Source of the DNA: Deltaproteobacteria bacterium
GTDB lineage: Bacteria; Desulfobacterota; Binatia; UTPRO1
Assembly (NCBI GenBank): GCA_020848745.1
Contig: JADLHM010000056.1
Coordinates: forward strand, 1 to 64,000
DNA length: 64,000 nt
Direction of reading: 5' to 3'
In this document: positions 1 through 11,744 of the stretch, piece after piece
How the letters are laid out: every line of letters begins with the position of its first letter
Numbering within the stretch: position 1 is the stretch's first letter
Translations under genes and position numbers: made by a program
The notes under the pieces: generated by a model
What the model was told of the DNA's origin: nothing
The model's input: the letters and a program-made list of their open reading frames with translations, nothing else
The model's database searches: none

Positions 1-120
1 AATCCGGCGCGGCTCCCGCCACTGTGAGTCGGAACGAACGCGCACGCAGGCCACTGCCCCTTCGGGTGGGAAGGCGGCGCAAGTAGGTCGCCGACGAGCC
101 AGGAGACCTAGCCCTCGAGG
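1..120 (+). ncRNA. Cobalamin riboswitch, 5' end missing
   Basis: Conserved cobalamin aptamer blocks appear in the right order: the CCCGCCACTGTGA block near 15-27, GCCACTG at 50-56, GGGAAGGC at 68-75 and the highly conserved GAGCCAGGAGACC at 96-108. The upstream strand of the aptamer lies before the window start, so this copy is partial only because of the cut. Riboswitches of this class normally lower expression of downstream genes when cobalamin is plentiful. The genes that follow (TonB-dependent receptor, BtuF, BtuC, BtuD) are the expected regulon. The aptamer is followed by about 210 bases of leader before the first gene, and the expression platform was not resolved. Confidence 0.93.
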
Positions 121-332
121 CAGCTCGTTCAACCGTCCCTCGGGAAAGTGGGGCCGGGAGCCATGACCGACGAACGAACGCACATCCACTGGACGATCGG
201 GCACGACGCCCGCTCGTCGACCGCGCGCCGGCCCGCCGCCGCGCCCCGCGCTCCGTTCTCGGCTCCGCGTTCCGCGCCCCCGTCGCGAGGGCCCAATGCG
301 ACGTCACGGGTAGTGGCGTCGAGGAGGACCTC
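121..332 (+). other. Leader between riboswitch and first gene
   Basis: This untranslated stretch must contain the expression platform of the riboswitch. It is GC-rich with several short self-complementary segments, but no clear terminator with a T-run is visible. A purine-rich GAGGAGG at 321-327 is the ribosome binding site of the gene starting at 333. Short open frames here have no support as genes. Confidence 0.5.
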
Positions 333-1688
333 ATGCGTCGCTTCTCCCTCGTCTTGTCCGCTCTCCTGGCCGTTGCGATCGCGCGCTCGGCGCCGGCGGC
401 GATCGTAGCCGATCCGGCCTACGTCGTCGGTACGATTCCGCTCCCGATCGTGAACGCGGCCGACGTCGCCGTCGTCGGCGCGTCGATCGCCATCGGGCAG
501 GGCTCGTTCGGCGCGGGTGGCCAGTCGATCATCCGACTCGACCCGAACGGGGGGGTGTTCACGATCGTCTCGAACCTGAACGCGATCGGCGCGATCGTGT
601 ACGATGCCGCGAACGATCGCCTGCTCTTCACCGACAACGCGGGCGAGCTCCCGGGCGCGACCAACGGCGACACGATCTATGCGTTGGCGGATCCGCGCTC
701 GGTCGTGTCGCCGATCGACGCCGCCACGCTGACGCTGCTGCCGAGCGGATCGATCCCGGCGGCACAGGCCGTGCTGCCCCTCCCGGGCGGCGACGTGCTC
801 GTCGGGGACGCCGCCGGGCCGGGTAGCGGGCGGGTGGTGCGGATCTCCTCCGGGGTGCCGAGCGACCTCGTCACCGGGCTCGACTACACCTCCGGCGTTT
901 CGTTGAGCCTCTCGGGCGGCGAGCTCCTGATCGGCAACGTCGACGCGTTCTTCAGCGGCAACGTCATCCGCTACTCGCTCGCCGGGGTCGCCATCGCGCC
1001 GCTTGCGACCGGGCTCAGCGGATCGTACGACCAGGCGGTCGACGCGGACGGCGACCTGCTCCTGACGGGCGGATTCACCGGCGATTTCTCGAGCTCGACC
1101 GTGATCGCCATCGCGCCGAACGGCGCCGTCGACGAGATCGCGTCGGGGTTCGGCTTCTCGAGCGGCCTCACGATCGATGGGCCGAGCCGCCAAGTGATGG
1201 TCCTCGACTTCGGCACGACCCGCATCGACACCCTGACGCCGGTCGACGCGCTGACGCCGGGGGGCGGCGGCTCCAAGGAATGTCACGTCGAGACGTTCGG
1301 CGGCGCGCCGGTCCGCTCGTCGTCCGGGAAGCCCAAGAATCGCTGGGAGTGTACCGACGGAGATCCGGCGTGCGACCGCGACGGGGTTGCGAACGGCGCC
1401 TGCGTCTTCTGGGTCGGCGCGTGCCTCGCGATCGCCGACGCGCGCGCGCCCAAGTGCGCGCCGGTCGGGATCGACGCGGTCACCGTGACCAGCAAGCGTC
1501 TCGCGACCGCCGCCGCTGCGATCGCGTCGGCCGTGTCGGCGGCGCTTCCGGCCGCCGGCCCGACGTGCAGCGGCACGACGATCGTGCCGGTCACGGCCGA
1601 CGGCAAGGGGCGGACGATCGTGTTCGACGCGTCCTGGGCGGGGAAGCGCCGCGACAAGGACGTGCTGTCGTTGCGGTGCCGGCCGTAA
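333..1688 (+). CDS. Secreted beta-propeller-like protein with Cys-rich C-terminal module
   Basis: A 451-residue exported protein, first gene after the cobalamin riboswitch. The start is set by GAGGAGG at 321-327. Residues 1-23 form a signal peptide ending near APA. Residues about 30-300 contain repeated strand-turn units such as IIRLDPNGG, AANDRLLFTD, GGDVLVGDA and GGELLIGN, as in NHL/YncE-like propellers. A Gly-rich linker leads to a roughly 140-residue C-terminal module with at least seven cysteines, including the CTDGDPACDRDG motif. I do not recognise this module as a named family. Position suggests a periplasmic or surface role in cobalamin capture, but no ligand site can be assigned. Confidence 0.75.
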   Translation: MRRFSLVLSALLAVAIARSAPAAIVADPAYVVGTIPLPIVNAADVAVVGASIAIGQGSFGAGGQSIIRLDPNGGVFTIVSNLNAIGAIVYDAANDRLLFTDNAGELPGATNGDTIYALADPRSVVSPIDAATLTLLPSGSIPAAQAVLPLPGGDVLVGDAAGPGSGRVVRISSGVPSDLVTGLDYTSGVSLSLSGGELLIGNVDAFFSGNVIRYSLAGVAIAPLATGLSGSYDQAVDADGDLLLTGGFTGDFSSSTVIAIAPNGAVDEIASGFGFSSGLTIDGPSRQVMVLDFGTTRIDTLTPVDALTPGGGGSKECHVETFGGAPVRSSSGKPKNRWECTDGDPACDRDGVANGACVFWVGACLAIADARAPKCAPVGIDAVTVTSKRLATAAAAIASAVSAALPAAGPTCSGTTIVPVTADGKGRTIVFDASWAGKRRDKDVLSLRCRP

Positions 1689-1729
1689 GCGCGGCCCGCC
1701 CGGCGATGATCCGGAGGAGGGCGAGAGCC

Positions 1730-2659
1730 ATGACGACATCGATCGCCGTCTCGGCGCGGCTGCGGAGCGGAATGGTGGGAATGGCTCTCGCTCTCGCGTG
1801 CCTCGCGCCGGCGCCGGCGGCCGCCGATCCCTGCCTCGACGACGTGGTGTCCTACACCATGGGGCAGAACGGGGGCTTCAACGCGGGTGAGGGCGGCACC
1901 GAGAACCTCCTTCCCGACGTCGTGCTCGGCGCGCCGCGCGGGCTCGGGCAGAGCGCCGGTTCGCTCGACGTGGTCTCGCTCGGGAACGGTGGCGGCATCA
2001 CGGTCGCCTTCACGGACAACCGCATCGTCGACGGTCCCGGCCCCGACGTCACGATCTTCGAGAACGCCTTCAACTCGCCGGGGCTCGGCATCTTCACCGA
2101 GGTGGCGGTGGTGGCGGCGAGCGCGGACGGTGTGACCTTCGTCGAGTTCCCGCACGGCGCGGGCGGACAGGATCTCTCCGGGATGGCGGGACGCACGCCG
2201 GTGTACGCCAACGTGGACACGAACGTGATCGATCCGCGCGATCCCGCGGTCTCGGGCGGCGACCAGTTCGACCTCGCGACGATCGGGCTCGCGAGCGCGC
2301 GCTGGCTCCGCATCACCGACCCGGGCGCCGCAATCGACGACGTCGGCAACCACTTCCCCACGCCGGGCGTCGGCAAGTCGGGATTCGACCTCGACGCGGC
2401 GATCGCGATCCATTCGGAAGGCACCTGTGCGGCGTGCTGCGACGCCGACGGCAACGGCAGCGTGAAGCCGAACGACGTCCTGCTGCTCCTCCGCGAGGTG
2501 TCCGAGTTGCCGAACGCGGTGAACCTCTGCGGGCCGGCGTCCTGCGGCGGCCGCTCGTGCGGGGACGCGAACGGCGATTGCCGGCTCGCCGCCGCCGACG
2601 TGTTGCTCTGCCTGCGCCTCGCGTCGGGGCTCACGGCGCCGTTTACGCTCTGCGAGTGA
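1730..2659 (+). CDS. Secreted surface protein with dockerin-like repeats, cobalamin operon
   Basis: A 309-residue exported protein. ATG 1730 is preferred because GGAGGAGGG lies just upstream; an in-frame ATG at 1706 would precede that site. A signal peptide covers about residues 1-32. Residues about 33-235 form one domain with motifs LPDVVLGAPRGLG, LDVVSLGNGGG and DGPGPDVTIFENAF, resembling 'cell surface protein' entries often found beside BtuB genes (from memory, not searched). Residues about 240-309 carry two dockerin-like calcium loops, DADGNGSVKPNDVLLLLR and DANGDCRLAAADVLLCLR. Its stop overlaps the GTG start of the receptor gene. It probably sits outside the cell and could dock to a cohesin-like partner encoded downstream. 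Confidence 0.75.
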   Translation: MTTSIAVSARLRSGMVGMALALACLAPAPAAADPCLDDVVSYTMGQNGGFNAGEGGTENLLPDVVLGAPRGLGQSAGSLDVVSLGNGGGITVAFTDNRIVDGPGPDVTIFENAFNSPGLGIFTEVAVVAASADGVTFVEFPHGAGGQDLSGMAGRTPVYANVDTNVIDPRDPAVSGGDQFDLATIGLASARWLRITDPGAAIDDVGNHFPTPGVGKSGFDLDAAIAIHSEGTCAACCDADGNGSVKPNDVLLLLREVSELPNAVNLCGPASCGGRSCGDANGDCRLAAADVLLCLRLASGLTAPFTLCE

Positions 2660-4728
2660 TCGCGATCCTCCATGGACGTGCGGGTCTCGCGGCCATGCTC
2701 TCCCTCTCGGCGATGATCGCCGCGACGGCCTTCGCGGAGGACCCGCTACTCGGCACGATCGAGGTACGGAGCGCGTCCGAGGCCGCGCCCGCGCCGAGGG
2801 ACGAGAGCGCCTTCGCGACGGTCGTGCCGATCGCCGACCAGCCCGCCGAGATCGACACGCTCGCCGACGTGCTCGACGAGACGGTCGGCGTGTCGGTGCG
2901 GCGCTTCGGGGGCCTCGGCGACTTCGCGACGGTCTCGATCCGCGGCAGCACGCCGGGGCAGGTCGGCGTCTTCTTCGACGGCGTCGCGCTCACGCGCGCC
3001 CGCAGCGAGACCGTGAACCTCGCCGACTTGCCGCTCGACCAGCTCGGCGCCGTCGAGGTGTACCGCGGGGTGTCGCCGCTCGCGCTCTCGGCGTCCGCGC
3101 TCGCGGGCGCGGTGAACCTCGTCTCGCGCGCCCCCGACGGCGTGCCGCGCTTCTCGCTCCTCGCGGGGGGCGGTTCGTTCGGGACGCGCAAGGCGAGCGT
3201 CGCCGGCTCGACGGTGCGCGGGCCGGTGTCGGGTTTCCTCTCCGCCACGTATCTCGGCAGCGACGGCGATTTCACGTTCGAGGACGACAACGGCACGCTC
3301 CAGAACCCCGACGACGACCGTGAGGCGAAGCGCCGCAACAATGCCTTCGATTCCGCCGAGGTGCTCGCCAAGGTGCGCTGGGCGCTCGCGTCGGGGGGCG
3401 CCGTCACCGGTCTCACGGAATTCTTCGCGAACCACCAGGGCGTGCCGGGGATCGGCGCGTTCCAGGCGGACGACGCGTCGCTCCGTGATCTCCGGAGCCT
3501 GAGCTACGTGCGCTTCGAGCGGCCCGGCCTCGCGGGGCTCCCCGTCGACCTCAGCAGCACGGGGTCCTTCGTCTTCGAGCGCGAGCGCTTCCGCGACGCC
3601 GAGGGCGAGATCGGGCTCGGCAACGTCGCGACCGACAACCGCACGTATACCGGCGCGCTCGACAACCTCCTCTCGACCCGGATCGGCCGGCATGCGCTCG
3701 AGGCGCGCGCCGACGTCGGCGGCCAGGTCTTCACGCCCGCGGACACGCTCGCCGCCGATCCGAACGGCCCCGACCAGAGTCGGATCCGCTTCGATCTCGC
3801 GGCCGGCGACACGATCGGCTTCTTCGACGACCGCCTGCTCGTGCAGCCGACGTTCCGCTGGGAGCACCTGCACGACGACTTCAGCGATCCGGGCGAGGCG
3901 TCCGGGCGGATCACGCGCGCGAGCCGGGGCGGCAGCCACGACCTGCTGACGCCGCGTCTCGGCCTGCGGTTCGACGCCGCGGATGGCGTCGCGTTCAAGG
4001 CGAACGTCGCCCGCGTCGAGCGCGCGCCGAACTTCACCGAGCTCTTCGGCAACCGCGGCTCGATCCTCGGCAACCCGAACCTCGACCCCGAGCGCGGCCT
4101 GAACGCCGACCTCGGTGTCGTGCTGACGCGCGACCGCCTCGGGTGGGCGCGGCGTCTCCGCCTCGAGGCCGTCGGCTTCGTCGCCGTCGTCGACGACCTG
4201 ATCGTGCTCGTGCAGAACTCGCAACGGACGTCGATCTTCCGGAATGTCGACCGCGCGCGCACGGTCGGCTGCGAGCTCGCCGCCGGCGCCGACGTCTCCG
4301 AGCACCTGCGGCTCGGGCTCAACTACACCTACCAGGACGCGCGCGACGAGAGCGGCATCCCGGCCCGCGACGGGAACCAGCTTCCCGGCCGGCCGCGCCA
4401 CGAGCTCTACCACCGCACCGAGTACCGGCGTGACGAAGGACGGCTGTTCTACGAGCTCGGCTTCGTCGCCGAGAACTTCCTCGACCAGGCGAACTTCCTG
4501 GTCGTGAACGCGCGCGCGATCCATACGGTCGGCGTCGAGGCCGACCTCGCGGCGCTCGGCCGCCGCTTTCGGAGGGGCGCGCTCGCGCGCATCCCGCTCC
4601 TCGTGACCTTCGAGGTCCGGAACTTCACCGACAACCAGGTCGAGGACGTCGCCGGTTATCCGCTGCCGGGACGCGCGTTCTTTGGGACGGTGCGCTGGGC
4701 GTGGGAAGGGCAGGGGCCGCGTGGCTGA
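2656..4728 (+). CDS. btuB: TonB-dependent outer-membrane receptor, BtuB-type
   Basis: This protein should bind cobalamin at the cell surface and import it through the outer membrane using TonB energy. It is 690 residues. GTG 2656 overlaps the previous stop by four bases and gives a signal peptide with a basic residue; the later ATG 2695 would lack the charged n-region. The plug domain is about residues 55-165 (TVSIRGSTPGQVGVFFDG, LGAVEVYRGVSPLALS, AGAVNLVSRAP). The rest is a 22-strand-type barrel with NFTELFGNRGSILGNPNL and a C-terminal strand rich in aromatics. The cobalamin substrate is inferred from the riboswitch and the neighbouring btuFCD, not from ligand residues. Confidence 0.9.
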   Translation: MIAILHGRAGLAAMLSLSAMIAATAFAEDPLLGTIEVRSASEAAPAPRDESAFATVVPIADQPAEIDTLADVLDETVGVSVRRFGGLGDFATVSIRGSTPGQVGVFFDGVALTRARSETVNLADLPLDQLGAVEVYRGVSPLALSASALAGAVNLVSRAPDGVPRFSLLAGGGSFGTRKASVAGSTVRGPVSGFLSATYLGSDGDFTFEDDNGTLQNPDDDREAKRRNNAFDSAEVLAKVRWALASGGAVTGLTEFFANHQGVPGIGAFQADDASLRDLRSLSYVRFERPGLAGLPVDLSSTGSFVFERERFRDAEGEIGLGNVATDNRTYTGALDNLLSTRIGRHALEARADVGGQVFTPADTLAADPNGPDQSRIRFDLAAGDTIGFFDDRLLVQPTFRWEHLHDDFSDPGEASGRITRASRGGSHDLLTPRLGLRFDAADGVAFKANVARVERAPNFTELFGNRGSILGNPNLDPERGLNADLGVVLTRDRLGWARRLRLEAVGFVAVVDDLIVLVQNSQRTSIFRNVDRARTVGCELAAGADVSEHLRLGLNYTYQDARDESGIPARDGNQLPGRPRHELYHRTEYRRDEGRLFYELGFVAENFLDQANFLVVNARAIHTVGVEADLAALGRRFRRGALARIPLLVTFEVRNFTDNQVEDVAGYPLPGRAFFGTVRWAWEGQGPRG

Positions 4729-5869
4729 CGGGTACCGGTGCGCGTGCGCCCTCCTGCTGCTCGCGGCCGCGCTCGCGGCGTGCAGCTCGGGCGGGGTCGA
4801 AGACCGCACGCCGGGCGACACGCCGCCGCCGCTCGCGGGCACGAGCGCGTTCGTCGTGACGACCGATTTCCAGACCGGCTCCTTCGCGGTCTTCCCGGTC
4901 CTCCAGCCCGACGCCGTCGCGAAGAACGTCGAGCGCATCCACTCCGACGCGGTGGCGCGCGTCCACGACGGCCTCGTGTACGTCGTGAACCGGCTCGGCG
5001 GCGACAACATCCAGGCGATCGACCCGGCGGCGGGCTACGCGACCCGCTGGCAGTGCTCGGTCGACAACGGCGCGAACCCGCACGACATCGCCTTCGCCGC
5101 GCCCGACAAGGCCTACGTGACGCGCTACGAGCGGACGACGCTCCTGATCGTCGATCCGACCACGGGGGCCGACTGCGCCCGCTTCGCGCGCGGCACGATC
5201 GACCTCGCGGCGCTCGCCGACGGCGACGGCCTTCCCGAGATGGACCAGGCCGTCGTGATCGGGGGCACGCTCTACGTGACCCTCCAGCGCCTCGACCGCC
5301 GGAACTTCTTCCGTCCGAGCGACCGCAGCACGATCGCCGTGATCGACGTCGCGACCGACAGGCTGGTCGGCGCGATCGACCTCACCGGGACGAACCCGTT
5401 CACGGAATCGGCCGGGCTCACGCCCGATCCGGCGACGGGGAAGCTCGTGCTGAACGAGGTCGGCGAGCTCGGCCGGCTCGACGACGGCGGCGTCGAGCGC
5501 GTCGACCCGACGACCATGCGCGCCGAGGGCTTCTTCGTCACCGAGCAGGACCTCGGCGGCAACGTGACCGACGTCGTGCTGATCGACGACCACCACGCCT
5601 ACGCGATCCTTCTCGACGAGACGGCGCGGAGCCGGGTCGTGCGTTTCGACCCGACGACGCGCCAGGTCATCCGGACCCTCGCGGCGGGCGACGAGTTCCT
5701 GGTCGACGTCGCGCTCGGGCCGGACCGCGCGACCCTCTACCTCACCGACCGGACCTTGAAGCGGCCCGGCGTGCGGCGCTTCGCGATCGCCGACGACGCG
5801 GAGCTGGCGCCGTCGCCGATCGACACCGGGCTCGCCCCCTTCGACGTCGTGTTCGTGACGGGACCATGA
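4721..5869 (+). CDS. YncE/BtuG-like beta-propeller lipoprotein
   Basis: A 382-residue lipoprotein. GTG 4721 overlaps the end of the receptor gene and places a lipobox, LAAC, at Cys21. The mature protein is a seven-bladed-propeller-like repeat (HDGLVYVVNRLGGDNIQ, NPHDIAFAAPDKAYVTRYE, STIAVIDVATDRLVG, GPDRATLYLTDRTLK). In Bacteroides, the propeller lipoprotein BtuG binds cobalamin at the surface on top of BtuB; the gene order here (receptor followed by propeller lipoprotein under a cobalamin riboswitch) fits the same role. Homology to BtuG is inferred from fold and context only. Other YncE-like proteins have unrelated functions. Confidence 0.78.
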   Translation: MADGYRCACALLLLAAALAACSSGGVEDRTPGDTPPPLAGTSAFVVTTDFQTGSFAVFPVLQPDAVAKNVERIHSDAVARVHDGLVYVVNRLGGDNIQAIDPAAGYATRWQCSVDNGANPHDIAFAAPDKAYVTRYERTTLLIVDPTTGADCARFARGTIDLAALADGDGLPEMDQAVVIGGTLYVTLQRLDRRNFFRPSDRSTIAVIDVATDRLVGAIDLTGTNPFTESAGLTPDPATGKLVLNEVGELGRLDDGGVERVDPTTMRAEGFFVTEQDLGGNVTDVVLIDDHHAYAILLDETARSRVVRFDPTTRQVIRTLAAGDEFLVDVALGPDRATLYLTDRTLKRPGVRRFAIADDAELAPSPIDTGLAPFDVVFVTGP

Positions 5870-5895
5870 ACGGGACCATGAGAAGGAGGGGAGGG

Positions 5896-7392
5896 ATGCG
5901 AGGCACGGAAGGGCGTGGGGCGCGGCTGCGGCGCTGGGTCGGGGTGCTCGTCGTGGCCGGTGTCGTCGCTGCGCCGCTCGCGGCGGCAGCGGGAGCCGAC
6001 CCCGTGCTCGCGTGCCGGCGGGCGATCGTGCGCGACGCCGCGAAGCTCGCGCGGGCGCGGCTCGCCGCGCTCCGCAAGTGCGAGGACGCGAAGCGCAAGG
6101 GGAAGCTTCCGGCGCTCACCGCCTGCCGCGACGAGCCGGCGATCGGCGCGGCGTTCGCGACTGCGACCGGGAAGCTCGCGGCGGTGGTCGCTCGCGCCTG
6201 CGGCGGCGCCGACGGACGCTGCGGCACCGCCGACGACCCGTCGCTCGCGGCGATCGCGTGGCCGGGCGCGTGCCCGGAGCTCGAGGGCAGCGGCTGCACG
6301 GCGGCGCTCGCGGGCTGCGGCGACGTCCCGGCTTGCGTCGCCTGCCTCGCCGACGCCGCGATCGGCCGCGGCGTCGCGCTCGCATACGCGCCGTTCGCCG
6401 CCGCCGACGCGAAGACGCAGAAGGCGGTCGTGCGCTGTCAGAAGGCGGTGGCCGGCGCCGCGACGGCGCTCGCGGCCGCCCGGCTCGCGGCCGGCGCGCG
6501 TTGCCTCGACGGCCGCCTCGCCGGCACGCATTCGGCGCCGTGCCCGCTTCCGGGCAACGGCAAGGCGGCGGCGAAGCTCGCGAAGGCGCGGGCCAAGGCG
6601 GAGGCCGCCGTCTGCAAGGCGTGCGGCGGCGTCGACAAGCGCTGCGGCGGCGGCGACGATCTCGCGCGTGAGCTCGTCGGCACCGCGCCCGCGTGTCCGG
6701 AGGTCGGTCTCTGCGACACCGCGATCGCGAGCTTCGTCGACGTGGTCGCGTGCTTCGACTGCAGCGCGGCAGCCCGCATCGATTGCGCGCTCGCGGGCGC
6801 TGCGCCGGGCGTCGCCGACTATCCGGCGGCGTGCGCCGCCGTGCCGCCGACGCCGACGCCCACCTCGACCCCGACCCCGACCGCCACGCCGAGCGCCTCG
6901 CCGACCTTCACGCCGTCGCCGACTCCGACCGCGACGCCGGTCTTCTGCCCGCGCGACGCGGCGCGCGTCTCGCGGGTGACGATCGGGCTCGTGACCGGCG
7001 GCCCGCTGCTCGGGGCCGCGAGCGCCGTGCTCGACTACGATCCCGAACGGGTGCGGCTCGACGGCGCCGGCGACGATCCCGCCGTGCGTGCCGCCGTGAC
7101 CGATCTCACCGGCGGCGCGCTGCTCGGCAGGGGCGCCCCCAACAACCAGGACCACGACGGCGACCTGGCGCCCGATCGGCTGCGCTTCACGCTGGTCGCC
7201 GCGAGCGGGGTCGCGGGCGACGTGCTGCGCGTGGCGTTCGCGCTCTGCGCGGACGCGCCGCTGCCGGCGATCGGCGACTACGCGTGCACGCTCGTTCCGG
7301 GAAGCGCGATTGCCGCGGACGCGGTGACGCCGCTGCCGAACGCCGCCTGCGTGATCGCCGTCGAGAACGTGACCCCAGGAGGAGATCCATGA
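5896..7392 (+). CDS. Secreted Cys-rich protein with Thr/Pro linker and cohesin-like domain
   Basis: A 498-residue exported protein. ATG 5896 is chosen over in-frame ATGs at 5866 and 5878 because AAGGAGG at 5883-5889 is ideally placed. After a signal peptide (about 1-34) come two related Cys-rich, Ala/Lys-rich helical units of about 120 residues; each holds a CGG(A/V)D(G/K)RCG motif and CxxC-like pairs (CVACL, CFDC). A 35-residue (Thr/Pro)-rich linker follows. The last 145 residues resemble a cohesin-type beta-sandwich (SAVLDYDPERVRLDG, RLRFTLVAASGVAGDVLRVAF). The Cys-rich units are not a family I can name. A surface scaffold role in the cobalamin operon is inference. Confidence 0.65.
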   Translation: MRGTEGRGARLRRWVGVLVVAGVVAAPLAAAAGADPVLACRRAIVRDAAKLARARLAALRKCEDAKRKGKLPALTACRDEPAIGAAFATATGKLAAVVARACGGADGRCGTADDPSLAAIAWPGACPELEGSGCTAALAGCGDVPACVACLADAAIGRGVALAYAPFAAADAKTQKAVVRCQKAVAGAATALAAARLAAGARCLDGRLAGTHSAPCPLPGNGKAAAKLAKARAKAEAAVCKACGGVDKRCGGGDDLARELVGTAPACPEVGLCDTAIASFVDVVACFDCSAAARIDCALAGAAPGVADYPAACAAVPPTPTPTSTPTPTATPSASPTFTPSPTPTATPVFCPRDAARVSRVTIGLVTGGPLLGAASAVLDYDPERVRLDGAGDDPAVRAAVTDLTGGALLGRGAPNNQDHDGDLAPDRLRFTLVAASGVAGDVLRVAFALCADAPLPAIGDYACTLVPGSAIAADAVTPLPNAACVIAVENVTPGGDP

Positions 7393-8045
7393 CGACGATG
7401 CGGACGGCGATTGCCATGACGATGCTGGTGCTCGGCGCGACGGCGGCGTCCGCCGCCGACCTCTGCGGCGACGCCGACGGCAGCGGCGCGATCAGCGTGA
7501 CCGACGGTGTGCAAACGCTGCGTGCCGCGGCCGGCCTCGGCAGCAGCTGCACGCCCGGGCGCTGCGATCTCGACGGCAGCGGCAGCGTTTCGGTGAGCGA
7601 CGGGGTGAACGTGCTGCGTGCCGCCGCGGGCCTCACGGTGAAGCTCGCGTGCCCGGGCGGAGTGCCGGCCTGCGCGAGCGCCGACGTCACGGTGACGCTC
7701 GTGACCCCGGCGCCGATCGGCGCCGCGACGCTCGATCTGGCGTATGCCGCGGAGGCGGTCGTCCTGCCCGGGAGCGGCGACGCCGCGGCCGAGCGGGTGA
7801 CGATCCTGACGGCGGCGTCGCTCCTCGCGAACGGGGCGCCGAACGACCTCGACGACCGGCTGCGCTTCACGCTCGTTGCCGGGGACGGGCTCGAGGGCGG
7901 CGCGCTCCTGCGAGTGCGCTTCGATTGTCTCGGCCCGGCGCCGAGCGCGGGTGCGTTCGCGTGCACGCTCGCCGACGTCACCGGCACTGACGGCCTCACG
8001 GAGATCGACGGTGCGACCTGCGGCGTCGCGGTCGCGACCGAATAG
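7389..8045 (+). CDS. Small secreted protein: dockerin-like repeats plus cohesin-like domain
   Basis: A 218-residue exported protein; its ATG overlaps the previous stop by four bases and follows an AGGAGGAG site. A signal peptide ends near residue 21 (ASA). Residues about 23-80 hold two dockerin-type loops with cysteines, DADGSGAISVTDGVQTLR and DLDGSGSVSVSDGVNVLR. Residues about 88-215 resemble the cohesin-like domain of the preceding gene (ATLDLAYAAEAVVLPG, DRLRFTLVAGDGLEGG, LLRVRFDC). Having both halves of a cohesin-dockerin pair in one small protein would allow chaining or bridging of surface partners. Actual binding is untested. Confidence 0.7.
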   Translation: MTTMRTAIAMTMLVLGATAASAADLCGDADGSGAISVTDGVQTLRAAAGLGSSCTPGRCDLDGSGSVSVSDGVNVLRAAAGLTVKLACPGGVPACASADVTVTLVTPAPIGAATLDLAYAAEAVVLPGSGDAAAERVTILTAASLLANGAPNDLDDRLRFTLVAGDGLEGGALLRVRFDCLGPAPSAGAFACTLADVTGTDGLTEIDGATCGVAVATE

Positions 8046-8062
8046 ATAGATAGGGAGGCGCA

Positions 8063-8986
8063 TTGGCGGCGACGGCGGACGGCTGGAGCGAGCGGATCGG
8101 AGACGACGGTCGGCGCACGCGCGTGCTCGTCGCCTTCGCGCTCTCACTCGCGTGCCACGCGCTCGTGCTCGCGCTCGCGCGCGGCTGGCGCGCTGCCGAT
8201 CCGGCGCCGGCGCGCCTGCTCGTGGTGACGGTGATGGGGCGCGGCGGCGGTGCGTCGGATCCCGGTGCGGCAGGTGCCGTGGGAGGAGCTGCCGTCGCGG
8301 ACGCCGCGAGTCCGGTCGCGCCGGCAGCGCCGGGCGCGGTCGCGGCGGCGCCGCCGGCGGCCGTTGCCGAGCGCCCGCGTCCGGCGCTGCCTCGCCGGGC
8401 CGCGCGCGTCGCGGCGCGGCCGCCGCCCCGGATCGCCGAGCGTCGCCCGGCCGCCGGCGCCGACGCGCCTCCCGGCGTGATCGACGTGAGCTCCGCCACG
8501 ACCGGCGCACCGCCCGCGGCAAGGGAGGCAGCGCCTTCCGCCGCCGATGCGGCTCTCGTCGCGACCGGTCTCGCGGCGGCCGCGCTGGGGCCGGGAGCCG
8601 CGCGCGGCGACGACCCGGCGGCGCCGGGCGGCGCGGGCGCGGCCGGCGGCGGTTCGGATCGCGGTTCGGGTCACGGTGCGGGTGGCGGGGAGGGCGAAAG
8701 GGGCGACGGCCTCCGTGCCTTCTGCGCCAGTTGTCCCATTCCCGACTATCCACCGCGCGCGCGGCGGCAGGGCTGGCAGGGCACCGTCGACGTGGCGCTC
8801 GCGATCGGCGGCGACGGCAGCGTCACCGAGGCGCGCGTCGGCCGCTCCTCGGGGTATCCCGCGCTCGACGAGGTCGCGCTCGGCGTCGCGCGCCGCAGCC
8901 GTTTCCGCGTGCCGGGGGGCGGCCGGGAGCTCCGCGGCCAGCTCCGCTACCGCTTCGTGCTCGACGCCAGCGCGGCGCGGCGGTAG
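8063..8986 (+). CDS. tonB: TonB energy transducer
   Basis: A 307-residue TonB-family protein linking proton motive force to the receptor. It starts at TTG 8063 after GGGAGG at 8053-8058, with no better in-frame start nearby. One transmembrane helix lies at about residues 22-38 (VLVAFALSLACHALVLALA). A long Ala/Pro/Gly-rich periplasm-spanning region runs to about residue 220. The C-terminal domain shows YPPRARRQGWQGTVDVALAI, GSVTEARVGRSSGYPALDE and FRVP. No exbB or exbD lies nearby, so it must use an ExbBD complex encoded elsewhere. Its place in the operon suggests it is dedicated to the BtuB-type receptor. Confidence 0.85.
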   Translation: MAATADGWSERIGDDGRRTRVLVAFALSLACHALVLALARGWRAADPAPARLLVVTVMGRGGGASDPGAAGAVGGAAVADAASPVAPAAPGAVAAAPPAAVAERPRPALPRRAARVAARPPPRIAERRPAAGADAPPGVIDVSSATTGAPPAAREAAPSAADAALVATGLAAAALGPGAARGDDPAAPGGAGAAGGGSDRGSGHGAGGGEGERGDGLRAFCASCPIPDYPPRARRQGWQGTVDVALAIGGDGSVTEARVGRSSGYPALDEVALGVARRSRFRVPGGGRELRGQLRYRFVLDASAARR

Positions 8987-8999
8987 GACCGGCGCGCCC

Positions 9000-9872
9000 A
9001 TGACCCCGCATCGCCTCGCGGCGGCCGCCGCGCTCGTGGTGTCGCTCGCGACGCGCGCAGCGGCCGTCGATCCGGCCCCGGGCGCGCCGCGTCCGTCGTC
9101 CGCCCCGCCGCCCGCGCGCATCGTCTCGCTCGCTCCCTCGGTGACCGAGACGCTCTTCGCGCTTGGCGTCGGCGCGCGGCTCGTCGCGGTGTCGGATCAT
9201 TGCGACTACCCGCCCGAGGCGGCGGCGCTGCCGCGCGTCGGCACGTTCAACGCGCCGAGCGTCGAAGCGGTGATCGCGGCGCGGCCGGATGTCGTGATCG
9301 GTCTCCCGAGCCCCGGCAACCACGAGAACGTGCTCACGATGGAGCGGCTCGGCGTGCGGGTCGAACTCGTCGATCCCGAGCGTCTCGCGGACCTTCCCGC
9401 CGTCACGCGCAGGATCGCCGCCGTCGCCGGCGTCCCGGAGGCGGGCGAGCGCCTCGTCGCCGCCATGCAGCGCGACATGGACGCCGTCCGCCGCAAGATC
9501 GCCGGCGCCCCGACGCCGCGGACGCTCATGCTGGTCGGGCGGGAGCCGCTGATCGCGGTCGGTCCCGAGAGCTTCCTCGGCGAGATGCTGGTCGCGGCGG
9601 GCGCCGTGAACGTCGCGCCCGCGCAGGGCGCGTGGCCACGCCTCAACCTCGAGGTCGTGATCGCCGCGGACCCGGAGGTGATCGTCGATTGCAGCATGGG
9701 GACGGAGGCTTCGACCGCCGCGCTCGCCTTCTGGGAACGCTTTCCGTCGCTTGCCGCCGTGCGGAACGGGCGCGTGCACCCGTTCCGCTCCTTCGAGGCG
9801 CTGCGACCGGGTCCGCGCCTCGCGCTCGCACTCGCGGAGCTCGCGCGCGTGCTCCATCCCGACCGGTTCTGA
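9000..9872 (+). CDS. btuF: Periplasmic cobalamin-binding protein
   Basis: The substrate-binding protein of the cobalamin ABC importer, 290 residues, with a signal peptide of about 21 residues ending near AAA. The class III binding-protein fold shows in RIVSLAPSVTETLFALGVG, LVAVSDHCDYPPEA, PSVEAVIAARPDVVIG and the helical backbone followed by a C-terminal lobe (LNLEVVIAADPEVIVD). The SDHCDYP motif is typical of cobalamin or siderophore binders. It lies 13 bases after tonB and one base before the permease gene. Confidence 0.88.
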   Translation: MTPHRLAAAAALVVSLATRAAAVDPAPGAPRPSSAPPPARIVSLAPSVTETLFALGVGARLVAVSDHCDYPPEAAALPRVGTFNAPSVEAVIAARPDVVIGLPSPGNHENVLTMERLGVRVELVDPERLADLPAVTRRIAAVAGVPEAGERLVAAMQRDMDAVRRKIAGAPTPRTLMLVGREPLIAVGPESFLGEMLVAAGAVNVAPAQGAWPRLNLEVVIAADPEVIVDCSMGTEASTAALAFWERFPSLAAVRNGRVHPFRSFEALRPGPRLALALAELARVLHPDRF

Positions 9873-9873
9873 C

Positions 9874-10890
9874 GTGTCGGTTCCGCATCTCACCTGGGCG
9901 CGGCTCGCGCGCGTGAACGGACTCCTGCTGGCGCTCCTCGTCGCGAGCCTCGTCGTGGCGGTGACGCTCGGCCCCGTCGCGCTCTCGTGGAGCCGCGTGT
10001 TCGCCGCCGGCGGTGGTCCGAACCCCGACGCGGTGATCCTCTTCCGGACGCGCCTCCCGCGCGTGCTGCTCGCGGCGATCGTCGGCGGCGCGCTCGGGAT
10101 CTCGGGCGCGGCGCTCCAGGCGCTGCTGCGCAATCCGCTCGCCGAGCCGCATCTGGTCGGCATCTCGAGCGGCGCCGCGCTCGCGGCGGCGCTCGCGCTC
10201 GTGACGATGCCGGTCGTGCTCGGGCAGGCGATCGTCGCGCCGGTTGCGGCCTTCGCCGGCGCGCTCGTGAGCATCTGGATCGTCGTGCGGCTCGCGTTCG
10301 TCGGCGCGCGCGTCGAGCCGACGACGCTGCTCCTCATCGGCGTCATCTACAACGCCTTTACCGGCGCCCTCCTGATGTTCCTGAACAGCATCGCCGACCT
10401 CTACCAGGTCCACGGCGTGCTCTTCTGGCTGATGGGACACCTCGGGGCGCGCGATTACCCGACGCTGGCGGCGCTCGCGCTCTACAGTCTCGCCGGCCTC
10501 GGCTTGCTGCTCCGGCACGCCCGCGACCTCGACTGTCTGAGCCTCGGCGACGAGCGGGCCGCCGAGCTCGGCGTCGACGTCGAGCGCGCGCGCCGCATGG
10601 TGTTCGTCGCGGCGGCGCTCCTGGTCGGCGCCGTCGTGTCGGTGAGCGGCCTCATCGGCTTCGTCGGGCTCGTCGTGCCGCATCTCGTGCGGCTCGTGTT
10701 CGGCGCCGACCATCGCCTGTTGCTGCCGGCGTCGTATCTCGCCGGCGCGATCTTCCTCGTGTGGGCGGACACCGTGGCGCGGACGGTGCTCGGCGTCACC
10801 GAGATCCCGGTCGGCGTGGTGACCGCGCTCTGCGGGGCTCCGGTGTTCGCGTATCTGCTGCGCCGCGAGCGCACGCTGGTGGGGTGGTGA
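9874..10890 (+). CDS. btuC: Cobalamin ABC transporter permease, FecCD family
   Basis: A 338-residue inner-membrane permease with about ten transmembrane helices. GTG 9874 follows the btuF stop directly. Family motifs are RTRLPRVLLAAIVGGALGIS, QALLRNPLAEPHLVGISSGA, the coupling-helix region LGDERAAELGVDVERAR, and GLIGFVGLVVPHLVRLVFG. Length and topology match BtuC/FecCD proteins. It pairs with the BtuF and BtuD proteins encoded on either side. Confidence 0.92.
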   Translation: MSVPHLTWARLARVNGLLLALLVASLVVAVTLGPVALSWSRVFAAGGGPNPDAVILFRTRLPRVLLAAIVGGALGISGAALQALLRNPLAEPHLVGISSGAALAAALALVTMPVVLGQAIVAPVAAFAGALVSIWIVVRLAFVGARVEPTTLLLIGVIYNAFTGALLMFLNSIADLYQVHGVLFWLMGHLGARDYPTLAALALYSLAGLGLLLRHARDLDCLSLGDERAAELGVDVERARRMVFVAAALLVGAVVSVSGLIGFVGLVVPHLVRLVFGADHRLLLPASYLAGAIFLVWADTVARTVLGVTEIPVGVVTALCGAPVFAYLLRRERTLVGW

Positions 10891-11744
10891 GCACCGCGCC
10901 GCCGGTCGCGCCGGAGGGGGGCGCCGCCGGGTCCCGCGTGCCCGCGCGGAGGGGAGCGTCCGACGTGCCCGCGCTCGCCGTCGAGCACGTCGCGTTCGCG
11001 TACGGCGCGCGCCCGGTGCTCCGCGACGTCGGCCTCGTGGTCGCGCGCGGTGCCATGGTGGCGCTCGCCGGGCCGAACGGCTCGGGGAAGTCGACGCTCC
11101 TGGCGCTCCTCGCCGGGACGCGCCGCGCCGCCGCCGGCACGATCACCATCGCCGGCCGCCCGATCGGCGAGTGGGAGCGACGCGCGCTCGCGCGCACGGT
11201 CGCCGTCGTGCCGCAGGAGACGAGCGTGACGTTCCCGTACAGCGTCGCCGAGATGGTGCTCATGGGACGCGCCCCGCACCGGCCGCCGCTCGGCCTCGAG
11301 GGCGCGCGCGACGTCGCGATCGCGGAGCGCGTGATGGGCGAGACCGGCATCTTCCACCTCGCCGGCCGCCGCATGACCGAGCTCTCGGGTGGCGAGCGGC
11401 AGCGGGTGGTCGTCGCGCGCGCGCTCGCGCAGGAGCCCGAGATCCTCCTCCTCGACGAGCCGACGACGCACCTCGACGTGCGCCACGCGATCGAGATCCT
11501 CGACCTGGTGGCCGCCGTGAACCGCACACGCGGCGTGACCGTGGTCGCCGTCCTGCACGACCTCACGAGCGCCGCGCTCTACTTCGAGCGAATCGCGTTC
11601 CTGCGCGACGGCGCGCTCGTCGCCGACGGCGCCCCCGCCGCGATCGTCACCGCCACGACCATCGCCCGCGTCTTCGACGCCGACGTGCGGGTCGACGTCG
11701 ACGCCGAGGGCATCCCGGCGATCCGTCCGCGCCGCCGGTCGTGA
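10887..11744 (+). CDS. btuD: Cobalamin ABC transporter ATPase
   Basis: The ATPase of the importer, 285 residues. GTG 10887 overlaps the permease stop by four bases and adds about 26 residues before the core; GTG 10965 would give the usual length. It has all ABC motifs: Walker A GPNGSGKST, Q-loop VVPQETS, signature LSGGERQ, Walker B ILLLDEP, D-loop THLD and H-loop VLHD. It is the last recognisable gene of the riboswitch operon; the next gene is on the opposite strand. Confidence 0.92.
   Translation: MSTAPPVAPEGGAAGSRVPARRGASDVPALAVEHVAFAYGARPVLRDVGLVVARGAMVALAGPNGSGKSTLLALLAGTRRAAAGTITIAGRPIGEWERRALARTVAVVPQETSVTFPYSVAEMVLMGRAPHRPPLGLEGARDVAIAERVMGETGIFHLAGRRMTELSGGERQRVVVARALAQEPEILLLDEPTTHLDVRHAIEILDLVAAVNRTRGVTVVAVLHDLTSAALYFERIAFLRDGALVADGAPAAIVTATTIARVFDADVRVDVDAEGIPAIRPRRRS

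What the first reader, a model, noticed from the sequence alone, without database searches (positions are those of the whole stretch)
1..11744. Riboswitch-controlled cobalamin uptake operon with secreted cohesin- and dockerin-like modules
The sequence shows a cobalamin riboswitch, BtuB-type receptor, TonB, BtuF, BtuC and BtuD. Interleaved with them are four extra exported proteins: two propellers and two proteins with a cohesin-like domain, plus dockerin-like loops in two proteins. Established: propeller lipoprotein BtuG captures cobalamin on BtuB in Bacteroides; cohesin-dockerin pairs join secreted proteins. Inference: a docked surface complex captures cobalamin in this lineage. I know of no described operon of this kind.
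Basis: partly seen in the sequence, partly recalled or inferred. Interest (0 to 1): 0.82.

Follow-up and report, generated by a model that had tools for sequence, protein, structure and literature searches.

The report
Vitamin B12 uptake operon with cohesin-dockerin modules
An uncultured bacterium of the class Binatia carries a vitamin B12 import operon whose exported B12-capture proteins bear the plug-and-socket domains best known from cellulose-degrading cellulosomes, suggesting that it clips its vitamin traps to the cell surface; the parts are confirmed, the clipping itself is not yet shown.

Summary
Confirmed. Window 1-11744 is a one-strand cobalamin operon: a cobalamin riboswitch cut by the contig end (69 bits), propeller (333), exported protein P2 (1730), BtuB-like receptor, propeller lipoprotein (4721), two exported proteins (5866, 7389), TonB, BtuF, BtuC, BtuD. 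The lipoprotein is BtuG-like: its nine best PDB matches are BtuG-type propellers. P2 is probably BtuH-like: Foldseek finds BtuB1-BtuG1, and in other phyla P2 is fused to a propeller beside BtuB, as in BtuG1. PropA and P2 sit behind cobalamin riboswitches in 14 of 15 Binatia loci tested. The cohesin call holds: the predicted fold matches almost only cohesins. The dockerin call holds at profile level; P2's C-terminus in one relative passes Pfam's cut-off. Across 98 Binatia genomes, 29 of 30 with the dockerin have a cohesin-like domain, against 13 of 68 without; dockerin-cohesin dyads like the 7389 protein recur. Cohesins inside the B12 operon occur in only two families, and P2's tail is swapped elsewhere. 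B12 binding and cohesin-dockerin binding are untested; no complex could be modelled. Best reading: BtuBG/BtuH-type surface capture, with dockerin-cohesin pairing replacing lipid or T9SS anchors. New variant of a known kind.

The parts
1..130 (+). cobalamin riboswitch, 3' two thirds of the aptamer (model positions 60-189)
   Evidence: Rfam RF00174, 69.1 bits; rest of the aptamer on contig C28, exact 126-base overlap
333..1688 (+). PropA: exported NHL-like beta-propeller with a C-terminal Cys-rich module
   Evidence: profile A3 matches propellers (PknD NHL domain, 5.5e-7); weak ScyD/ScyE match; directly behind the riboswitch in Binatia loci
1730..2659 (+). P2: exported protein, BtuH-like beta-sandwich (about 1820-2416) plus C-terminal dockerin-like pair of loops (about 2396-2638)
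   Evidence: Foldseek rank 2 is BtuB1-BtuG1 8blw_B; weak sequence match to the 8blw_B H domain, E 0.24; dockerin profile hits
2656..4728 (+). BtuB-type TonB-dependent receptor
   Evidence: Pfam plug and barrel; TIGR01779 113 bits; phmmer to E. coli BtuB about 1e-12
4721..5869 (+). PropB: BtuG-like beta-propeller lipoprotein (lipobox LAAC)
   Evidence: profile A4: nine best PDB matches are BtuG-type propellers, best E 0.0029
5866..7392 (+). P5: exported protein, Cys-rich N-terminal part, Pro/Thr linker, C-terminal cohesin-like domain at 6913-7389
7389..8045 (+). P6: exported dockerin (7464-7634) - cohesin (7647-8042) dyad
   Evidence: AF2 and Foldseek
8063..8986 (+). TonB
   Evidence: PF03544 2.1e-15
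9000..9872 (+). BtuF-like binding protein
   Evidence: PF01497; NF002894 8.8e-30, below the equivalog cut-off
9874..10890 (+). BtuC-like permease
   Evidence: PF01032 6.4e-91
10887..11744 (+). BtuD-like ATPase
   Evidence: PF00005 6.5e-33

Best explanation
A B12-repressed operon for cobamide capture and import. When B12 is scarce the riboswitch lets the cell make a BtuB-type receptor with a BtuG-like lipoprotein lid (PropB), a BtuH-like B12-binding exported protein (P2) and a second propeller (PropA), plus TonB and BtuFCD to complete import. In this lineage P2 has no lipid anchor. Its C-terminal dockerin would plug into a cohesin, on P5, on the dockerin-cohesin adaptor P6, or on cohesin lipoproteins encoded elsewhere, so that the B12-binding proteins stay near the receptor and hand B12 to BtuG/BtuB. 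Shown: gene order, riboswitch, families, folds, conservation. Inferred: B12 binding by PropA, P2 and PropB; dockerin-cohesin pairing; location outside the cell.
For: Riboswitch in 14 of 15 Binatia loci tested, including PropA-P2 pairs with no btuB nearby, and in 9 of 13 P2 loci of other phyla. PropB's nine best PDB hits are BtuG-type propellers. P2 model: 8blw_B (BtuB1-BtuG1) is rank 2 of 350,542 chains, and P2 is fused behind a propeller next to BtuB in L132, L116 and L142, the architecture of BtuG1 (PMC10404256). A BtuB-type receptor is found in 39 of 80 P2 loci across phyla, next to P2 in 25. Cohesin fold; dockerin. Dockerin and cohesin co-occur: 29 of 30 dockerin genomes have a cohesin-like domain against 13 of 68 others; 19 of 19 genomes with strong dockerin matches have the second cohesin-like family against 1 of 79 others. 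A cohesin-like lipoprotein gene stands next to a dockerin gene in the same genome. Dyads like P6 recur in other families. T9SS-type sorting tails take the dockerin's place in L132 and L160.
Against: No binding data. The BtuH link at sequence level is weak (E 0.24; no hit with the wider profile), and the top fold hit is an F5/8-type domain. The window's cohesins do not reach Pfam PF00963. The P2 tail is an Ig-like domain in families f4, f10 and f16 and thrombospondin-type repeats in f8, so docking is not a constant part of the system. Cohesins inside the B12 operon occur only in families f1 and f6. Co-occurrence follows family lines and is partly a result of fused dyads.
Confidence: 0.55

Rival explanations
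1. The dockerin-cohesin pair is real but general: it builds an extracellular protein network or adhesive layer, and the B12 proteins are only some of its many clients rather than forming a dedicated B12 complex.
For: 16 dockerins in the genome, mostly outside the operon, and at least three further cohesin-like proteins elsewhere; cohesin/dockerin proteins are proposed as adhesins in syntrophic sulfate reducers and ANME (PMC10553843); a second TonB-receptor locus uses the same modules.
Against: The two close-profile cohesins of the genome are both in the B12 operon, and the operon-linked cohesin moves between different proteins at the same place in relatives, which suggests a local role.
Confidence: 0.22
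2. An ordinary BtuB-BtuG(-BtuH) cobamide uptake operon in which the dockerin- and cohesin-like domains are end domains (folding, spacing or general cell-surface sorting) that do not pair with each other.
For: The P2 C-terminal module is exchanged freely between lineages (dockerin, Ig-like, thrombospondin type 3). Dockerin-like domains sit on diverse exported proteins of the same genome. The window's cohesins have extra conserved cysteines.
Against: Near-perfect presence/absence agreement of dockerin and cohesin-like domains over 98 genomes, also outside the seed genomes; a cohesin gene adjacent to a dockerin gene; both folds in one operon and in one protein.
Confidence: 0.2
3. The operon imports some other ligand and only resembles a B12 system.
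For: No NCBIfam equivalog cut-off is reached by BtuB, BtuF, BtuC or BtuD; the best NCBIfam hit of the receptor is a siderophore receptor.
Against: Cobalamin riboswitches throughout; PropB best hits are BtuG; E. coli BtuB is among the best solved relatives of the receptor.
Confidence: 0.03

Closest known systems
Bacteroides BtuBG / BtuH cobamide uptake loci (PMC10404256, PMC8941943, PMC6143338, PMC12751083)
   Same: Cobalamin riboswitch, BtuB, propeller lipoprotein BtuG beside BtuB, extra exported B12-binding proteins, BtuFCD; BtuG1 is a propeller fused to an H domain, the architecture seen with P2 in L116, L132 and L142
   Different: Here the BtuH-like domain is a separate, non-lipidated protein with a dockerin, there is a second propeller (PropA), and cohesin-bearing proteins P5 and P6 are in the operon; BtuH has PKD domains and a lipid anchor instead
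Non-cellulosomal cohesins and dockerins (Archaeoglobus fulgidus cohesin 2xdh; Peer et al. 2009, PMID 19025568, seen here only in a reference list)
   Same: Divergent cohesin fold and short calcium-loop dockerins on exported proteins outside cellulosomes
   Different: Placed in a riboswitch-controlled vitamin operon and next to TonB receptors; dockerin-cohesin dyads; conserved cysteines in the cohesin
Cellulosome scaffoldin systems
   Same: Dockerin and cohesin modules on exported proteins; calcium-loop duplication
   Different: No scaffoldin, no glycoside hydrolase, no carbohydrate-binding module in the operon
DUF4465 / BtuJ B12-binding proteins (PMC13398666)
   Same: Exported beta-sandwich B12 scavengers linked to BtuB and propellers
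   Different: No DUF4465 match in the operon

Membership tests
Cobalamin riboswitch-controlled BtuBFCD uptake | cobalamin riboswitch upstream | tested here: met
   RF00174 69.1 bits, completed on C28
Cobalamin riboswitch-controlled BtuBFCD uptake | BtuB-type TonB receptor plus TonB, BtuF, FecCD permease and ATPase | tested here: met
   Pfam domains above cut-off; BtuB relatives in PDB. NCBIfam equivalog cut-offs are not reached
BtuG | beta-propeller lipoprotein next to BtuB, related in sequence to BtuG | tested here: met
   lipobox LAAC, gene order, nine best PDB hits BtuG-type propellers with best E 0.0029
BtuG | binds cobamide and caps BtuB | not testable with these tools
   needs protein
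BtuH | H-domain fold and sequence | tested here: inconclusive
   8blw_B rank 2 by fold but low TM-score and an F5/8 domain first; sequence E 0.24 only, no hit with the wider profile; fusion architecture agrees
BtuH | high-affinity B12 binding | not testable with these tools
   needs protein
Cohesin (PF00963) | cohesin fold | tested here: met
   Foldseek prob 1.00, nearly all top 20 are cohesins; 2xdh best PDB profile hit
Cohesin (PF00963) | Pfam cut-off reached by the window's domains | tested here: not met
   own genome 0 over cut-off; one relative domain (G011:C2:135.4-135.9 kb) is hit by both PF00963 above cut-off and profile A2. I therefore call it cohesin-like, not a Pfam cohesin
Cohesin (PF00963) | binds a dockerin | not testable with these tools
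   no complex prediction on hand
Dockerin type I (PF00404) | two calcium-loop plus helix repeats | tested here: met
   alignment A5; PDB dockerins among the best hits
Dockerin type I (PF00404) | Pfam cut-off | tested here: inconclusive
   window proteins not listed; the P2 homolog in L061 passes (30.6 bits over 22.9)
Cellulosome | multi-cohesin scaffoldin with dockerin-bearing glycoside hydrolases | tested here: not met
   none in the operon

The most novel reading that the evidence does not exclude
Binatia use a class-wide cohesin-dockerin system, with lipoprotein cohesins as anchors and dockerin-cohesin dyads as adaptors, to assemble nutrient-capture complexes around TonB-dependent receptors, of which the B12 operon is one case and an Oar-type receptor locus another.
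Probability: 0.4. Interest if true: 0.85.

Novelty: new variant of a known kind. Interest (0 to 1): 0.7.

Why it matters
Cohesin-dockerin pairs are known above all from cellulose degradation. Their use to hold vitamin-capture proteins at a TonB receptor would be a new way to build an outer-membrane uptake complex, would explain how non-lipidated BtuH-like proteins stay at the surface outside Bacteroides, and offers a directly testable pair of small proteins. It also extends BtuG-like, and probably BtuH-like, B12 capture well beyond Bacteroidota.

Tried and rejected
Pfam and NCBIfam alone gave nothing above cut-off for the extra exported proteins. The wider P2 profile A6 found no PDB chain, so the BtuH link rests on the fold hit, the weak A1 hit and the fusion. 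A first co-occurrence test with only cohesin profile A2 was moderate and showed dockerin-rich families with no cohesin; it looked like evidence against pairing until a second cohesin-like family (A8) was found next to a dockerin gene and filled exactly those families. A8 is linked to A2 by hhalign (96%), but its own best PDB hit is a titin Ig domain, so its cohesin nature is less certain. The A2 search reported only two cohesins in the genome, an undercount because it missed divergent copies. The P0006 model gave no confident dockerin fold or interface. No cellulosome-type enzymes were seen in the operon.
Full report
OBSERVATION. The window opens inside a cobalamin riboswitch (1-130, model 60-189, 69.1 bits). 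The missing 5' part is on contig C28 of the same genome, which overlaps the window's first 126 bases exactly, an assembly break. Ten genes follow on the + strand up to 11744, closely spaced or overlapping: PropA 333, P2 1730, BtuB ~2656, PropB 4721, P5 5866, P6 7389, TonB 8063, BtuF 9000, BtuC 9874, BtuD 10887. Receptor, TonB, binding protein, permease and ATPase are clear by Pfam, though none of BtuB, BtuF, BtuC and BtuD reaches an NCBIfam equivalog cut-off. The extra exported proteins have no Pfam family above cut-off.

LINEAGE. I place the genome in class Binatia; the naming of the class from these titles is an inference.

CONSERVATION. P2 was found in 42 of 145 related genomes. Around it, PropA stands next to P2 in most loci, and BtuB and PropB often follow. 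P5 and P6 as such occur only in the genus and near family, but a cohesin-like C-terminal domain of the same type is attached to other proteins at the same operon position in families f1 and f6: to PropB (L050, L202), to P2 itself (L053, L055, L056), or to further exported proteins (L052, L054). A cobalamin riboswitch lies upstream in 14 of 15 Binatia loci tested (the one exception, L054, starts inside PropA), including isolated PropA-P2 pairs such as L056, L057, L060, L063 and L075. Regulation therefore ties PropA and P2 to B12 independently of btuB.

BEYOND THE CLASS. A collection scan with P2 gave 80 loci, among them Myxococcota, Planctomycetes, WOR-3, KSB1, Zixibacteria, Ignavibacteria, Sumerlaeota and Bacteroidetes. 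A BtuB-type receptor is in 39 of them and next to P2 in 25; a BtuG-like propeller is in 21. Nine of 13 such loci tested have a cobalamin riboswitch. In L116, L132 and L142 one protein next to BtuB joins an N-terminal propeller to the P2 domain and a sorting-like tail. This is the layout of Bacteroides BtuG1, whose C-terminal extension is a BtuH domain (PMC10404256). The P2 profile's only B12-related PDB hit is that very extension (8blw_B residues 438-498, E 0.24), and the AF2 model of P2 (N-domain pLDDT above 90 over most of its length) finds 8blw_B at rank 2, E 6e-4. Each line is weak alone; together they make a BtuH-like role likely. PropB's nine best PDB hits are BtuG-type propellers.

COHESIN AND DOCKERIN. 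The cohesin-like domains of P5 and P6 and their relatives form one family with four invariant positions, three of them cysteines. The profile's best PDB hit is the Archaeoglobus cohesin 2xdh (E 0.016). The P6 model, built on only three sequences, has a cohesin part with pLDDT mostly 67-88 and matches almost only cohesins among the top 20. Pfam's cohesin model does not pass in this genome but passes in several relatives, once on a domain also found by profile A2. The dockerin-like domain has two DxDGxG-type loops with helices. Its profile finds PDB dockerins, it occurs 16 times in this genome on diverse exported proteins, and it also hits the P2 C-terminus. The P2 homolog of L061 passes Pfam Dockerin_1.

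DO THEY PAIR? Over 98 genomes, cohesin profile A2 and dockerin profile A5 alone agree only moderately (15 genomes with both, 15 dockerin only, 12 cohesin only). Reading the neighbourhood of a dockerin gene in this genome showed a lipoprotein with a divergent cohesin-like domain (C30:33-569, beside a dockerin gene). Its family (A8) is related to A2 (hhalign 96%) and is present in 19 of 19 genomes with strong dockerin matches and in 1 of 79 others; leaving out the eight genomes that seeded A8, 11 of 11. With either cohesin family, 29 of 30 dockerin genomes have one, against 13 of 68 without. By families of the class, strong dockerin versus A8 gives 5 of 5 against 1 of 11 (p 0.001). Dockerin-cohesin dyads in one frame, 9-81 bases apart, occur in several families as in P6. 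This supports a working pair, with the caution that genomes are related and dyads make the two domains co-occur by fusion.

MECHANISM. I read the operon as a BtuBG/BtuH-type capture system in which attachment of the non-lipidated P2 is by dockerin-cohesin pairing, where Bacteroides BtuH uses a lipid anchor and the P2 homologs in L132 and L160 carry T9SS-type sorting tails. P6 could link a dockerin partner to another cohesin. Cohesin-like lipoproteins exist elsewhere in the genome (C30, C72). Binding, location and B12 affinity are not shown.

LIMITS. No complex prediction was on hand; genomes are metagenome-assembled; gene starts of P5 and PropB are uncertain; the automatic gene caller used for neighbourhoods is home-made; searches for prior descriptions found no paper joining these terms in the held library, which omits most subscription papers.

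Noticed in passing
L198-L212 (e.g. L198:1957-14825, L201:2157-13337, L204:12-10353): A second locus type in several Binatia families: an Oar-type (CarboxypepD_reg) TonB receptor of about 930 aa, often with TonB-like genes, and several exported proteins with C-terminal cohesin-like domains plus a dockerin-bearing exported protein; substrate unknown.
   Followed up: partly
L223:33-569 and 703-1602 (G000:C30); L239:8807-9610; L240:8538-9308: Three further cohesin-like proteins in the same genome, two of them with lipoprotein-like signals and Pro/Thr linkers, one beside a dockerin gene.
   Followed up: partly
L220:8344-12486 (G000:C105): Dockerin-like domains on an imelysin-like protein and a di-haem oxidoreductase in a cluster with an ApbE-like and a Fur-like gene (names from reading the sequences, not from a family search); the same modules may serve metal uptake.
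   Followed up: no
window 1-126: Exact 126-base overlap with the end of contig C28; the genus-mate G001 contig is cut at the same point of the riboswitch, so the assembly break is inside the aptamer.
   Followed up: yes
L215:14278-17157 (G011:C2): Repeated near-identical cohesin units in a possible scaffoldin-like protein of another Binatia family.
   Followed up: no
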